Below are positions 8,955 through 13,377 of a stretch of 64,000 nt of DNA, piece after piece. Position 1 is the stretch's first letter. The number at the start of each line of letters is the position of its first letter. The stretch covers positions 1 through 64,000 of the forward strand of contig NZ_CAJHAR010000002.1 of assembly GCF_904846415.1 (NCBI RefSeq), given 5' to 3'. The DNA is from Psychrobacter piscatorii (GTDB lineage Bacteria; Pseudomonadota; Gammaproteobacteria; Pseudomonadales; Moraxellaceae). Made by a program: the position numbers and the translations under genes. A model generated the notes under the pieces. That model did not search any database and was not told where the DNA came from. It was given only the letters and a program-made list of their open reading frames with translations.

Positions 8955-10178
8955 CTACCGCGCCATGTACTGGGTCATCTCCTCAACACCGTGTAGCGTC
9001 ATCGGATACATCTTATTTTCAAATAGTTTTTTGATCTCAACGATGGTTTGCGTGTACTGCCAATAGCTTGGGGTTTCAGGATTGAGCCACGCCACTTTGT
9101 CAAAGTGTTCAAGCACACGCCTTAGCCATACAATACCCGCTTCATTGTTCATATACTCGACGCTACCGCCCACGGTCATCAGCTCATACGGCGACATCGA
9201 TGCGTCACCGACGAAGATGACACGATACTCGCGACCATATTTATTGAGCAGCTCAAACGTTGGCATCGGTGCACTATGGCGACGGTTGTTGTCCTTCCAC
9301 ACATAGTCATACAAGCAGTTATGAAAATAGAAAAACTCTAATGTTTTAAATTCGTTCTTTGCCGCAGAGAACAGTTTCTCAAGTGCTTCAACATGGATGT
9401 CCATACTACCGCCCACATCAAATAGCATCAATACCTTGACTCGGTTGCGGCGCTCGGCTTGCATATGTATATCAAGCACACCCTTTTTGGCAGTACGTTT
9501 AATGGTCTCATGAATATCGAGCTCGTCCGCGCTGCCTGTGCGCGCAAACTGACGTAGATTGCGTAGTGCCATTTGGATTTGGCGGGTACCAAGCTGATTA
9601 TCATCATCAAGATTACGGTATTTACGCTGCTCCCAGACTTTTGCTGCGCTACGTTTACGCGATTCACCGCCGACGCGCACCCCTTCTGGATGATCTCCAT
9701 AAGCACCAAATGGCGAAGTACCGCCCGTCCCTACCCACTTGCTACCACCTTGGTGACGCGCTTTTTGCTCTTTTAACCGCTCTTCTAACGCTTTCATCAG
9801 CTCCTCTAATGAGCCGTACTTTTTTAGCAGACGTCTTTGCTCTTCGGTCAGATTTTTTGGGTCGAGCTTTAGATCAAGCCATTCTTTAGGCACATCGGTC
9901 AGCTTAGCCAATAGCGCATCCATATCAAGGCTATCAATCCCTTCAAAATAATCTGCCATGGCCCGATCAAATTTATCAAAATGGCGTTCGTCTTTAACCA
10001 TACACAGCCGAATTAACCGATACATGTCCTCACGGCTCGCAAAAGTCGCCAGTGCTGGATCTTCAGGATGCGGCTGCATCATTAAACCCTTGTCTAACGC
10101 GGCATTGAGATCAAGCAGCTCACGCGTACTGACTGGCACGCCATAAGTCCGCAAGGTATAGAATAATTTTATGAACAT
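8955..10178 (-). CDS. CoxE-type VWA domain protein
   Basis: A 407-residue cytoplasmic protein. The N-terminal half is helical (VPVSTRELLDLNAAL, the hallmark of CoxE-like proteins), followed by a basic linker and a C-terminal von Willebrand A domain. The metal-site motif around residue 254 reads DVGGS instead of DxSGS, so one coordinating serine is replaced by glycine. Such proteins work with MoxR AAA+ ATPases, probably in metal insertion or protein remodelling. The start codon lies 2 bases after the stop of the nuclease-like gene, and its ribosome binding site AAAGG is inside the last codons of that gene, so translation is probably coupled. Confidence 0.9.
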   Translation of the reverse strand: MFIKLFYTLRTYGVPVSTRELLDLNAALDKGLMMQPHPEDPALATFASREDMYRLIRLCMVKDERHFDKFDRAMADYFEGIDSLDMDALLAKLTDVPKEWLDLKLDPKNLTEEQRRLLKKYGSLEELMKALEERLKEQKARHQGGSKWVGTGGTSPFGAYGDHPEGVRVGGESRKRSAAKVWEQRKYRNLDDDNQLGTRQIQMALRNLRQFARTGSADELDIHETIKRTAKKGVLDIHMQAERRNRVKVLMLFDVGGSMDIHVEALEKLFSAAKNEFKTLEFFYFHNCLYDYVWKDNNRRHSAPMPTFELLNKYGREYRVIFVGDASMSPYELMTVGGSVEYMNNEAGIVWLRRVLEHFDKVAWLNPETPSYWQYTQTIVEIKKLFENKMYPMTLHGVEEMTQYMAR

Positions 10179-10180
10179 GA

Positions 10181-12304
10181 TTATGCCTTTAGTGTAGAAG
10201 CAGGATTTAACTCTTGGATTGAACTCATAAGCGGTAAGTTATCAAGCCAAAACTTATTGCCCTCAATAATATCAATCACTGCGTCTAAACTCCCTTCCAA
10301 GGTACCAGAAGCGCTTTTATCATCATTATTCTTGAGCATATCGGAGAAGTATCGTTTATGTCCGTTTAGAATAATAACCAACTCTTCAAAGGATATTTTT
10401 AAAAACCCATCAATATATTCGTGATCAAACTCTAGCGTTGTGTCTATAATCCACGAGTGAATGCTAAATTTAGAGCTATCAAGTCCTAGGCTGGGTAAAA
10501 AAATATCGCTAACATAGCTAGACTTACGTGATAATTGATACACAGCTTTTTTCAATATAAAATTTCTATACTCATATATTTCTTTCACACTACTTTTTAC
10601 ATAAGTAGATTTAAGTTCAATAACCAAAACTTTATTATCTGTTACTACAATCGCATCTATCTCACCCACTCCAGACTCTGAAGGCTCATACTGACTATAG
10701 ACTTCACCTTTATATTTAGCCAATAGCCCAGCTAGATTCTGCTCCATTAAATCGGTTTCAGATTTCAAACTAGCTCTATTTTTATACAATTTTCTGAAGG
10801 TATTTATGGTAGCTGTATTGAAGTTTTTTTGAGCTAATATCCATGGCAGAGCAAAAATATAGTCATCAATTTTGTAAAAAGAGTTTTCAACATAAGAAGT
10901 GTCGCTACCACCGCGTAAGTCTATCGACCAAAAATCAAGAATACGACTCATCTCTCTTACTCTTTTATTTTTACCACCTTCGATTATCCAATCTGACATT
11001 TTAATTGCTTTTTCTTTGTGAGTAGAGAAAGTAATAGGCATCCTATTTTGACCAATTAAAAGCCCATCGATCATCAGTTTCGTTAAGGTAGAAAATACAT
11101 GTTGATCATTGCTGTCTCTTATTTTTTTAAAAGCTGTAACAAAGTCTTGGACGTAATGCGCCTGTGATAACAACATCGTAAAAATTAAAGAATATAGGTC
11201 ATAGTCTTGTTCAAAGACTGCTTTTTCGATGCCATATATTTCATATAATTGTAGGACAATACCTTGGGTCTTAGCTAACGCCAGCGCGTTAGACTCTATA
11301 TTCTTGCCTCTATCTAAGCGCTCAAAGTAAGGGTTTTCTGTTAAAGTATTAATGCCGCGCCATTGCCAATATGCTGATAAAATGCCAAACTTTTCTTGAA
11401 ATAAGTCTAAATTACGTGGTTTGGATTCGAGTACCAATTGACCATTCTTTAAATAATAATTTGTTGAAAATTGATAACAGTAAGCACTAATAACTTGATC
11501 TTGATACAAATTAATTTCTATTTTATGAGCGACCAGCCGTTTAAAATCATCATATTGGTTTATAAGAGAATAGTTTAGATTTTCACCAAATAGAAAAGGA
11601 GACATTTTAGCTTTTAGAACTTGAGTTAACTTCTTCTCCGTTAGCTGATTTTTCTCTATATTTGAGCTTGTGATAACTTCATGAAAAACAGCCCAAATAT
11701 CTTGAACAGAAACGGTATCGTTAATGTCCATTTGATAAGGTATTTTTAGATAATCAGTATCACTCATTAAATATTCATAAGCATAGAAGCTACTGAATAC
11801 CATTGCTGTGATTTGGTCGAGCTGCAGCTGATTTTTAAGATTTTTATAGGCACTGAGGCGCTCTTGATACTGTAGTTGTATGTATTCAACTGTTCGTAAA
11901 AAATTATTAAATTTGAGAAAGTTAAACTGATCAGCTATTTTCTTTAAAATTACCCAAGAATTGTGTTCAGACTGGGCAATAATACCTGATAGGCGCACTG
12001 CATTAATGACACTTTCTTCGTCCATTTTAAGAAGGTTTTCCAATATACAGGCATCTATAGATGAATGCGATAACCGAATATACTGACCCAAAGCAAATAC
12101 AAAATTCTCATTACTCAAATGATCTTGCGATAGCGTCACGATAAAATCTGAAGACCAAAAATCAGTAAATTTATTCACTTTGTTTTTAAGTGTGGAAGGG
12201 GTACTACTTTGGAACAATAAAATATCGATTATCTTTGCCAATGCTTCTTCATAGCCAAAATCAATAGCCAGAGCTTCAAATTTAGTGTCAAAATACGTTT
12301 TCAT
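10181..12304 (-). CDS. large protein with C-terminal PD-(D/E)XK nuclease-like domain
   Basis: A 707-residue protein I cannot assign to a named family. Residues 1 to about 500 are mostly helical with many Leu, Asn and aromatic residues and no membrane segment. The C-terminal part has a restriction-endonuclease-fold core: GVGEIDAIVV with Asp550, then VLVIELKS with Glu563 and Lys565, preceded by a helix with KYKGEVYSQYE. This is the D..ExK triad typical of nucleases acting on DNA or RNA. It lies between moxR and the VWA gene, 39 bases after moxR and 2 before the VWA gene. It is markedly more AT-rich than both, which suggests later acquisition. A defence or DNA-repair role is possible but unproven. 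Confidence 0.75.
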   Translation of the reverse strand: MKTYFDTKFEALAIDFGYEEALAKIIDILLFQSSTPSTLKNKVNKFTDFWSSDFIVTLSQDHLSNENFVFALGQYIRLSHSSIDACILENLLKMDEESVINAVRLSGIIAQSEHNSWVILKKIADQFNFLKFNNFLRTVEYIQLQYQERLSAYKNLKNQLQLDQITAMVFSSFYAYEYLMSDTDYLKIPYQMDINDTVSVQDIWAVFHEVITSSNIEKNQLTEKKLTQVLKAKMSPFLFGENLNYSLINQYDDFKRLVAHKIEINLYQDQVISAYCYQFSTNYYLKNGQLVLESKPRNLDLFQEKFGILSAYWQWRGINTLTENPYFERLDRGKNIESNALALAKTQGIVLQLYEIYGIEKAVFEQDYDLYSLIFTMLLSQAHYVQDFVTAFKKIRDSNDQHVFSTLTKLMIDGLLIGQNRMPITFSTHKEKAIKMSDWIIEGGKNKRVREMSRILDFWSIDLRGGSDTSYVENSFYKIDDYIFALPWILAQKNFNTATINTFRKLYKNRASLKSETDLMEQNLAGLLAKYKGEVYSQYEPSESGVGEIDAIVVTDNKVLVIELKSTYVKSSVKEIYEYRNFILKKAVYQLSRKSSYVSDIFLPSLGLDSSKFSIHSWIIDTTLEFDHEYIDGFLKISFEELVIILNGHKRYFSDMLKNNDDKSASGTLEGSLDAVIDIIEGNKFWLDNLPLMSSIQELNPASTLKA

Positions 12305-12343
12305 TATTCACCCATCAGCTTAAAATTCAACTCGACCTTTATA

Positions 12344-13192
12344 TTAACGACGCATCATATTGGCAAAGCGCTGCAACAGATTCACATCCGCTTCGTTTTT
12401 CAGCAATGCACCATATAATGGTGGGATAGATTTTTCGCCACGTAAGTTTTCTTCTAGCTCATTCTGAGCCATGTCATCAGCGAGCAATAACGTCAACCAA
12501 TCGACCAATTCAGACGTGGATGGTGGTTTTTTCAGGCCTTGGATATTGCGCAGTTTGTAGAATATATCTAAGGCATCGTTGACCAATTTTTCTTGAATAT
12601 TGGGGAAATGCACCTCAATGATTTGGCGCATGGTTTGCTCTTCTGGAAAGTCGATGTAATGGAAGAAACAACGACGCAAAAACGCATCGGGTAGCTCTTT
12701 TTCATTGTTTGATGTGATAATTACCACAGGACGCTGTGCCGCTGTAATGGTCTCACCCGTCTCATAAACATAAAACGACATCTTATCGAGCTCATGCAGC
12801 AAGTCATTAGGGAACTCGATATCGGCTTTATCAATCTCATCGATCAGTAGTACGCTGCGCTCAGTGCTAGTGAAGGCATCCCACAGCTTGCCTGGCTTGA
12901 TGTAATTGCCAATCTCATAAACTTTGTCATCACCCAACTGCGAATCACGCAGGCGCGATACCGCATCGTACTCGTATAAACCCTGCTCAGCTTTAGTCGT
13001 CGACTTGATGTGCCACGTAATCAGTGGCATCCCTAGAATTTCAGCAACCTCTCCTGCAAGCAATGTCTTACCCGTACCAGGTTCACCCTTGATAAGGAGC
13101 GGCTTTTGTAGTGTCATGGCCGCATTCACTGCCAGTTGTAAATCGTCTGTTGCGATATAATTTTGAGTGCCGGTAAAGGTTTGCTTGCTCAT
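12344..13192 (-). CDS. MoxR family AAA+ ATPase
   Basis: A 282-residue ATPase with Walker A GEPGTGKT at residues 36-43, Walker B LLIDEIDKAD near residue 115, sensor-1 VVIITSNNEKELPDAFLRRC, and the MoxR-type C-terminal helical lid. MoxR proteins hydrolyse ATP to remodel partner proteins and are normally encoded directly beside a CoxE-like VWA protein. Here the partner gene follows on the same strand but is separated by the nuclease-like gene. The ATG is used; it should be the first gene of the unit. Confidence 0.93.
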   Translation of the reverse strand: MSKQTFTGTQNYIATDDLQLAVNAAMTLQKPLLIKGEPGTGKTLLAGEVAEILGMPLITWHIKSTTKAEQGLYEYDAVSRLRDSQLGDDKVYEIGNYIKPGKLWDAFTSTERSVLLIDEIDKADIEFPNDLLHELDKMSFYVYETGETITAAQRPVVIITSNNEKELPDAFLRRCFFHYIDFPEEQTMRQIIEVHFPNIQEKLVNDALDIFYKLRNIQGLKKPPSTSELVDWLTLLLADDMAQNELEENLRGEKSIPPLYGALLKNEADVNLLQRFANMMRR

Positions 13193-13377
13193 AATCAGGT
13201 CTCGGTTGTTGTTATAGATGTATGGTTATAAATAAATAGGACTAAAAATTTGATAATGAATAAAAAATAAATTAGATTAGCACAGCCTGACGTATTGCCA
13301 AAATACTCATGCGTTCGCCTTTATGAGTAATGGTTGTATACCTCTAACCATTCATATGACTGGTAAACACTTTGGCA

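What the first reader, a model, noticed from the sequence alone, without database searches (positions are those of the whole stretch)
8955..13192. PD-(D/E)XK nuclease-like gene embedded between moxR and its VWA partner
MoxR ATPase and CoxE-like VWA genes are normally adjacent. Here a 707-residue protein with a D550..E563-x-K565 nuclease core lies exactly between them, 39 bases after moxR and 2 bases before the VWA start. It is clearly more AT-rich than both. A three-gene MoxR/nuclease/VWA unit could be a chaperone-controlled nuclease system, for example in defence or DNA repair. MoxR-VWA pairs with a third, variable component are known in conflict systems; this particular third component I do not recognise.
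Basis: partly seen in the sequence, partly recalled or inferred. Interest (0 to 1): 0.72.

Follow-up and report, generated by a model that had tools for sequence, protein, structure and literature searches.

The report
Hitchhiking anti-phage nuclease in core operon
A probable anti-virus DNA-cutting gene with an exchangeable middle section sits inside an unrelated housekeeping operon of a Psychrobacter bacterium; relatives of the gene sit in other places, so it looks like a travelling defence gene rather than part of a chaperone machine.

Summary
The middle protein (here X, 707 aa) has a PD-(D/E)XK core by profile (NERD, PF08378) and by a confident model; E521, D550, E563 and K565 are invariant in 13 of 13 aligned homologues, down to 22% identity. 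A MoxR/nuclease/VWA unit is not supported: MoxR and VWA occur in 101 of 105 Psychrobacter genomes, X in 6. In Acinetobacter X sits directly behind acnB, and one carrier has its VWA gene about 555 kb away. Three other Psychrobacter genomes hold unrelated genes (NADAR, GNAT, an unknown) in the same gap. Five of seven distant neighbourhoods read have full-length matches to known or candidate defence genes beside X, and the acnB gap holds many abortive-infection and nuclease families. X is a mosaic: residues 160-490 have a different history from both ends, and most of the ends is 95-98% identical between two species whose moxR and VWA genes are 75-89% identical. Best reading: a stand-alone, horizontally moving defence nuclease with an exchangeable central, probably sensing, module that borrows expression from core operons. 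No function has been tested experimentally.

The parts
10181..12304 (-). Gene X: 707-aa NERD-type PD-(D/E)XK protein, single-gene cargo between moxR and VWA
   Evidence: ORF; Pfam NERD; homologues
11855..12304 (-). X residues 1-150: all-helical ARM/HEAT-like N-terminal part
   Evidence: Models; only helical-repeat matches, best Z 8.5, rmsd 3.6 over 135 residues
10835..11827 (-). X residues 160-490: central module, exchanged as a block between alleles; putative sensor
   Evidence: Informative-site segmentation, bounds chosen to fit best; sliding identity
10367..10768 (-). X residues 513-646: PD-(D/E)XK nuclease core (NERD)
   Evidence: Pfam, model, structure matches
10742..10744 (-). codon of E521, invariant glutamate in the first core helix
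   Evidence: invariant in 13 of 13
10655..10657 (-). codon of D550, predicted metal ligand
   Evidence: invariant in 13 of 13; read
10610..10618 (-). codons of E563-x-K565, predicted catalytic pair
   Evidence: invariant in 13 of 13; read
10186..10190 (-). AAAGG, Shine-Dalgarno-like, inside the 3' end of X, 7 bases before the VWA start: VWA translation is probably coupled to the end of X
   Evidence: sequence; inference
12344..13192 (-). MoxR AAA+ ATPase (host operon, core gene)
   Evidence: Pfam AAA_5; in 101 of 105 genus genomes
8955..10178 (-). CoxE-like VWA protein (host operon, core gene)
   Evidence: Pfam VWA_CoxE; in 101 of 105 genus genomes

Best explanation
X is a stand-alone anti-phage (or anti-mobile-DNA) nuclease carried as single-gene cargo. 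It has a helical N-terminal part, a central module that is exchanged between alleles by recombination and most likely recognises an invader cue, and a C-terminal NERD-type PD-(D/E)XK domain that most likely cuts nucleic acid, either the invader's or the cell's own, once released. In Moraxellaceae the gene sits in or at the tail of core transcription units (between moxR and VWA here, behind acnB in Acinetobacter) and most likely borrows their promoter. It moves between species, most likely by DNA uptake and homologous recombination. Shown here: predicted fold, conserved catalytic residues, exchange of different genes at the same slot, mosaic structure, sequence similarity far above that of the core genes in one species pair, defence neighbourhoods. 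Inferred: nuclease activity, sensing by the central module, protection against phage, co-transcription, the route of transfer.
For: Nuclease. Neighbourhoods of distant homologues: beside PD-Lambda-1 on a Vibrio plasmid (L092), a WYL protein with BrxB and BrxC on a Pseudomonas plasmid (L094), a PDC-S73 protein in Desulfobulbus (L088), PDC-S06 and dGTPase on an Arcobacter plasmid (L096), and PDC-M63A/M63B in G421 (L177); a sixth (L095) has PDC-S01 and SoFic matches 2.5-5 kb away behind an insertion sequence. acnB slot: of 70 Acinetobacter loci, 56 have a same-strand ORF starting within 330 bases of acnB, in 30 unrelated clusters, X being the largest with 5; 29 of these ORFs, from 26 of the 29 non-X clusters, include AAA_15/OLD, PDDEXK_4, GmrSD, Mrr, Abi_C, putAbiC, HEPN and DUF4365 with PADLOC Old/GajA/AriA matches. 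Mosaic: 279 informative sites; inside residues 160-490 195 support own+G214, 8 own+G057, 4 own+G134; outside 3, 65 and 4; 40 runs against a permutation mean of 120 and minimum of 96 in 10,000. Transfer: X ends own-G057 0.95-0.98 over residues 1-165 and about 505-610, 0.89-0.90 after that; moxR and VWA 0.75-0.89.
Against: No experiment. The PADLOC 'Viperin-associated NERD' match covers only the end of that model (positions 369-541 of 542) and 5 of 11 homologues do not match it. Several neighbours match PDC models, which are only candidate defence genes, and no control was run for how often random genes on such replicons have PADLOC neighbours. One neighbourhood (L093) has insertion sequences and no full-length PADLOC match. 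The acnB slot also holds ordinary genes (a short-chain dehydrogenase, an FGE-sulfatase-like protein), and so does the moxR|VWA gap elsewhere (GNAT, GFA). In Psychrobacter all 6 carriers keep X between moxR and VWA, which a functional partnership would also predict. 'Sensor' rests on the exchange pattern alone; the region found no structural match of its own. In Acinetobacter only one of 15 pairs shows the block pattern clearly.
Confidence: 0.68

Rival explanations
1. Chaperone-gated nuclease: X is the effector of a three-gene MoxR/X/VWA conflict system, held inactive and released by the MoxR-VWA pair.
For: All 6 Psychrobacter carriers have exactly this order, with X and VWA 2 bases apart in the window. 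MoxR-vWA ternary conflict systems with a third component are described (PMC7159879, passages seen). The MoxR is a distant relative of MadB of the MADS system (125.8 bits).
Against: Core pair in 101 of 105 Psychrobacter genomes, X in 6. X unlinked to the pair in Acinetobacter and not annotated with it on five plasmids. Unrelated genes in the same gap. X and its flanks have different histories.
Confidence: 0.1
2. X is a DNA-repair or plasmid-maintenance nuclease, or a general stress nuclease, without a defence role.
For: The fold is shared with Holliday-junction resolvases and repair enzymes (weak Hjc matches, E 0.18 and worse; structural matches). Several homologues are on plasmids (8 records).
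Against: Patchy occurrence (13 of 299 family genomes), defence-gene neighbours, the defence-rich acnB slot, block exchange of the central part.
Confidence: 0.15
3. X is a selfish or neutral passenger: a gene that persists only because it lands harmlessly inside core operons.
For: Ordinary enzymes are found in the same gap in other lineages (GNAT in G138 and L185, GFA in L186). Another core gap in the genus, gcvT|gcvH, also holds cargo: 4 of 105 over 400 bases against 9 of 101 for moxR|VWA (a fifth gcv gap is an artefact of a short match); Fisher p 0.28 with the five.
Against: Purifying selection, an intact catalytic set in every aligned homologue, recurrent association with defence genes. Two Acinetobacter copies are broken or split, though.
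Confidence: 0.07

Closest known systems
NERD domain (PF08378) proteins, incl. PADLOC 'Viperin-associated NERD' (PDLC02906)
   Same: C-terminal PD-(D/E)XK core; PADLOC match E 2.6e-16 over residues 476-686, and in 6 of 11 homologues
   Different: The match covers only the last third of the PADLOC model and of X. No neighbour was annotated as a viperin in the five plasmid regions, but many neighbours are hypothetical and viperin was not searched for by profile.
Upx (cryo-EM entry 9wuf; recalled, not seen, as a single-gene PD-(D/E)XK defence protein of Gao et al. 2020)
   Same: Only structural match with E <= 0.001 and the broadest: Foldseek E 3.7e-4, probability 1.00; VIA Z 10.4, 369 residues, model 111-646
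   Different: TM-scores 0.24 and 0.16, VIA rmsd 7.8, 9% identity; no sequence-profile match up to E 10; 1212 residues. One search warns that Z under about 13 can be a common arrangement in helical models. Not reproduced by residues 1-500 alone.
Shedu (SduA)
   Same: PD-(D/E)XK nuclease fused to a variable N-terminal sensory module, as described in PMC12839542 (passage seen)
   Different: No SduA among the PADLOC matches; structural Z only 6.6. In X the exchanged part is central, between a conserved N-terminus and the nuclease.
MoxR-vWA ternary conflict systems (PMC7159879, passages seen) and MADS MadB/MadC
   Same: MoxR plus CoxE-like VWA plus an extra gene
   Different: Pfam finds only NERD in X. 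MoxR far under the MadB cut-off (125.8 of 475 bits) and VWA under MadC (13.6 of 600). The pair is core without X.
Chromosomal hotspots of gene turnover (PMC5635113, search listing and start of abstract only)
   Same: Rapid turnover of unrelated genes at a fixed core position
   Different: Here the site is the gap between, or the tail of, core genes and mostly holds one or two genes. Integrases and transposons are not wholly absent from the acnB region: a phage integrase lies just beyond the conserved 73-aa gene in L139 and L143, and transposase genes lie in L129 and L134.

Membership tests
PD-(D/E)XK nuclease, NERD (PF08378) | Pfam NERD score at or above gathering cut-off | tested here: met
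   22.4 against 22.1 bits, barely above; 11 of 11 homologues match at E <= 0.1
PD-(D/E)XK nuclease, NERD (PF08378) | Conserved acidic/lysine catalytic set on the right strands | tested here: met
   E521, D550, E563, K565 invariant in 13 of 13; E521 in helix 513-529, D550 in strand 549-554, E563 and K565 in strand 558-565 of the model
PD-(D/E)XK nuclease, NERD (PF08378) | Nuclease activity | not testable with these tools
   needs purified protein
MoxR-vWA ternary conflict system | Third component linked to the MoxR-VWA pair across genomes | tested here: not met
   Pair without X in 95 of 101 Psychrobacter genomes; X behind acnB in Acinetobacter
MoxR-vWA ternary conflict system | VMAP, iSTAND, FtsH or beta-propeller third component | tested here: not met
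   Only NERD found in X by Pfam at E <= 1; bpMoxR 14.8 of 27 bits for MoxR. Not every one of these components need have a Pfam model.
MADS defence system | MadB and MadC equivalog scores | tested here: not met
   125.8 of 475 and 13.6 of 600 bits
Upx | Sequence or fold match to Upx over most of X | tested here: inconclusive
   Fold match Z 10.4, rmsd 7.8, 369 residues, TM 0.24/0.16; no sequence match up to E 10
Shedu (SduA) | SduA profile or fold match | tested here: inconclusive
   No SduA in the PADLOC tables; structure Z 6.6
Viperin-associated NERD (PADLOC) | Full-length match to the model | tested here: not met
   Only positions 369-541 of 542 matched
Viperin-associated NERD (PADLOC) | A neighbouring viperin gene | tested here: inconclusive
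   None annotated in five plasmid regions, none among the neighbours profiled; many neighbours not profiled

The most novel reading that the evidence does not exclude
X represents an unnamed family of single-gene immune nucleases in which the recognition module is a cassette: homologous recombination, guided by the conserved N-terminus and nuclease, exchanges the central 330 residues between species, so one gene at a fixed core-operon slot samples new invader specificities without partner genes. Wider still, core operons of Moraxellaceae (moxR|VWA, acnB tail) would act as standing docking sites for exchangeable single-gene immunity, refilled by DNA uptake.
Probability: 0.35. Interest if true: 0.72.

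Novelty: new variant of a known kind. Interest (0 to 1): 0.5.

Why it matters
It corrects a tempting but probably wrong reading (a chaperone-gated nuclease) and shows how gene order inside an operon can mislead: the operon looks like a dock, not a partnership. The module exchange in X gives a direct handle on what such single-gene nucleases recognise: natural alleles share both ends and differ in a defined 330-residue block, so a swap experiment can map specificity. The acnB tail of Acinetobacter, with 30 unrelated ORF clusters in 70 loci, looks like a rich place to find new single-gene defence systems; the one search made for prior mention (Acinetobacter, acnB, hotspot, defense) listed one paper, a review on antimicrobial resistance and epigenetic regulation.

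Tried and rejected
Phage and viral origins: no match to X in the phage collection, none confirmed in IMG/VR, no viral structure match at E <= 0.001. PDB sequence relatives: none meaningful. Residues 1-500 folded alone (pLDDT 72.7) gave only generic helical-repeat matches, mostly for residues 1-145, so the Upx resemblance was not reproduced by that part and is kept as a lead. Wider surveys found the family to be rare: window genome plus 1 other of 398 phylum genomes, window genome plus 1 other of 369 class genomes, 13 of 299 in the family, window included, 13 loci in the genome-contig scan.

Is moxR|VWA a special hotspot? Gaps over 400 bases: 9 of 101 genomes (6 X, 1 NADAR, 1 GNAT, 1 unrecognised). 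Of the rest, one gap is 199 bases, one measures 334 only because the MoxR match is short (the genes adjoin), and the others are at most 159. For gcvT|gcvH, one search counts 5 of 105; one (G250) comes from a short gcvT match and has only about 280 bases between ORFs, leaving 4: a PIN gene in one, one 196-205-aa family in three, split in one of them. The difference is not significant (Fisher p 0.28 with the five). I do not claim the moxR|VWA gap is exceptional. Two of nine sampled gammaproteobacterial loci outside the genus Psychrobacter and Acinetobacter also have a gene in that gap (L185 GNAT, L186 GFA); one search had used a wrong frame for L185 and found nothing.

Limits of counts: the 70 acnB loci are the 30 best-scoring plus 40 of the other 68, taken down the list with some skipped, not at random. 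The gene caller was crude (longest ORFs first, 65 aa or more), so a few of the shorter ORFs may not be genes, and some loci were cut at 1.5 kb. The Pfam and PADLOC scans saw 29 of the 56 ORFs: 26 of the 29 non-X clusters, three of them twice, two sequences truncated; three singletons were left out. Three of the six Psychrobacter carriers (G214, G232, G234) are near-identical, so the mosaic test used four alleles. Of the plasmid matches H4 (near-copy of H3), H7 and H8, and the fragment L098, were not read; the Methylococcaceae copy (L087) is in two frames and not counted.

Full report
Observation. The window is from a Psychrobacter genome: contigs of its same-genus carriers match named Psychrobacter records by length. 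MoxR (12344-13192), X (10181-12304) and VWA (8955-10178) lie on the minus strand with gaps of 39 and 2 bases. GC is 0.452, 0.333 and 0.475.

What X is. Pfam finds only the NERD nuclease-related domain, just above its cut-off. PADLOC's 'Viperin-associated NERD' model matches residues 476-686 at E 2.6e-16, but only by its last third. Homologues were found in Psychrobacter (6 of 105 genomes; all 105 genus handles were given out), Acinetobacter, Moraxella caprae, Desulfobulbus, a Methylococcaceae bin and plasmids of Vibrio, Aeromonas, Pseudomonas, Rhodoferax and Arcobacter. In a 13-sequence alignment with identities down to 22%, E521, D550, E563 and K565 are invariant. The AlphaFold2 model (pLDDT 83, pTM 0.83) shows helix 513-529, strands 534-539, 549-554 and 558-565, helix 573-605 and strand 614-621, the PD-(D/E)XK order. 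The second-look structure comparison puts the nuclease part (rows within model residues 350-700) among restriction and CRISPR-ancillary nucleases (BspD6I small subunit Z 10.5, FokI, McrC, Can2, Card1). The broadest match is Upx (9wuf): Foldseek E 3.7e-4, probability 1.00, but TM-scores 0.24 and 0.16; VIA Z 10.4 over 369 residues with rmsd 7.8. I treat it as a lead.

MoxR and VWA are not its partners. Each is found in 101 of 105 Psychrobacter genomes. In 9 of the 101 the gap between them exceeds 400 bases and holds a gene: X in 6, and a NADAR protein (G262), a GNAT protein (G138) and an unrecognised 217-aa protein (G188) in one each. In the X carriers the whole ordinary gap, including the sequence normally preceding VWA, is replaced from the moxR stop to the VWA start. 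In the window VWA then has a Shine-Dalgarno-like AAAGG inside the end of X. In Acinetobacter all 6 carriers have X directly downstream of aconitase B on the same strand (one copy is interrupted by a transposase gene, one is split across contigs); a seventh was seen. An eighth contig (L085) starts too close to X to tell. VWA occurs in 55 of 60 Acinetobacter genomes; in carrier G157 it lies about 555 kb from X. In Moraxella caprae (L025) X is elsewhere, beside neither moxR/VWA nor acnB.

Cargo behaviour. The acnB tail in Acinetobacter is a gene-turnover site. Of 70 loci examined (30 best-scoring plus 40 of the other 68), 56 have a same-strand ORF starting within 330 bases of acnB, in 30 unrelated clusters, X being the largest with 5. 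In 20 of the 56 the conserved 73-aa gene is seen further on; in 2 further loci it follows acnB directly. A scan of 29 of the ORFs found AAA_15 (3), PDDEXK_4 (2) and one each of GmrSD, Mrr, Abi_C, putAbiC, DUF4365, DUF4062 and HEPN, besides a dehydrogenase and an FGE-sulfatase-like protein, and PADLOC Old, GajA and AriA matches in 3 members. A phage integrase lies just beyond the 73-aa gene in two loci, and transposase genes lie in two, so mobile elements do visit the region.

Defence neighbourhood. Of seven intact, non-duplicate neighbourhoods of distant homologues (L088, L092-L096, L177), five have full-length matches to known or candidate defence genes close by: PD-Lambda-1 (E 3e-178), BrxB and BrxC (E 2e-70 and 0), PDC-S73 (E 8e-145), PDC-S06 with a dGTPase (E 4e-265 and 3e-62), and PDC-M63A with M63B (E 1e-63 and 2e-154) next to X in a genome that also has a phage integrase nearby. 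L095 has PDC-S01 (E 5e-176) and SoFic (E 1e-35) a few kilobases off, behind an insertion sequence; L093 has only insertion sequences and a short SEC-C-type match. PDC models are candidates, and no random-gene control was run.

Mosaic. Across the operon the core flanks mostly group own with G134 and G214 with G057. X residues 1-150 and 500-707 group own with G057, at 0.95-0.98 nucleotide identity over the first 450 bases and over about residues 505-610, then 0.89-0.90. Residues 160-490 group own with G214 and G057 with G134. With the block bounds chosen to fit best, 195 informative sites inside support own+G214 against 8 own+G057 and 4 own+G134; outside it is 3, 65 and 4. The sites form 40 runs against at least 96 in 10,000 permutations. 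In Acinetobacter the pair ANC 4862 and A. terrae is 0.97-0.98 over the first 150 codons, 0.67-0.86 in the middle, 0.86-0.90 over codons 500-600 and 0.69-0.73 after that; the other 14 pairs show no such clear block. So in Psychrobacter X moves between species and its central block is exchanged separately. This is what one expects of a recognition module under changing selection, though the pattern alone does not prove recognition.

Mechanism proposed. X is transcribed with its host operon (inferred). The central module detects an invader cue (inferred). The NERD domain then cuts nucleic acid (inferred from fold and residues). Whether it restricts the invader directly or kills the cell is open. 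It works like Shedu or Upx, a nuclease fused to a variable part, but I file it in neither: no SduA profile match was listed and the fold evidence is inconclusive for both.

Literature. Passages were seen in PMC7159879 (MoxR-vWA ternary systems), PMC10865869, PMC10952713 (NERD in Mokosh type I and Nhi-like) and PMC12839542 (NERD in PglW; Shedu architecture). The meaning of the name Upx is recalled, not seen. Searches for an acnB defence hotspot in Acinetobacter, for Psychrobacter MoxR nuclease hotspots and for single-gene defence cargo in operons listed no paper whose title or abstract start describes these slots; only listings were read.

Verdict. Novelty is moderate: a new variant of known single-gene nuclease defence, with unusually clear module exchange and an instructive operon-hitchhiking habit.

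Noticed in passing
L099-L168 (Acinetobacter genomes), downstream of acnB: The gap behind aconitase B is a gene-turnover site: 56 of 70 loci have a same-strand ORF starting within 330 bases, in 30 unrelated clusters, many of abortive-infection or nuclease families.
   Followed up: partly
L139:2700-3719, L143:2051-3070: A phage integrase gene lies just beyond the conserved 73-aa gene downstream of the acnB slot in two Acinetobacter genomes; the site may also be used by integrating elements.
   Followed up: no
L059:3958-4482, L060:4861-5715, L061:4893-5546: GNAT, NADAR and unrecognised 217-aa genes occupy the same moxR|VWA gap in three other Psychrobacter genomes. The NADAR protein also matches PADLOC PDC-M42C.
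   Followed up: partly
L185:2692-3285, L186:1051-1455: In two more distant gammaproteobacteria the moxR|VWA gap also holds a gene, a GNAT and a GFA-family protein.
   Followed up: partly
L060:9940-10332; L173:1657-2274; L174:1739-2384; L175:1659-2249: The gcvT|gcvH gap of Psychrobacter also holds cargo in 4 of 105 genomes: a PIN gene in one and one small secreted-looking family, without a Pfam match in the member tested, in three.
   Followed up: partly
L062 (G238), between moxR and VWA: The 199-base gap contains, by eye, a roughly 100-base element with terminal inverted repeats (AACGGGTAT...), like a MITE or REP element.
   Followed up: no
L169 (G034) against window 12344-13200: G034 has a VWA protein 100% identical to the window's and mostly about 95% identical surroundings, but its moxR drops to 79-87%, so moxR itself seems to have been exchanged by recombination in one of the two.
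   Followed up: no
L028:8123-9148 (G167): An Acinetobacter copy of X is interrupted by a transposase gene (HTH_38 and weak rve matches), suggesting loss by insertion.
   Followed up: no
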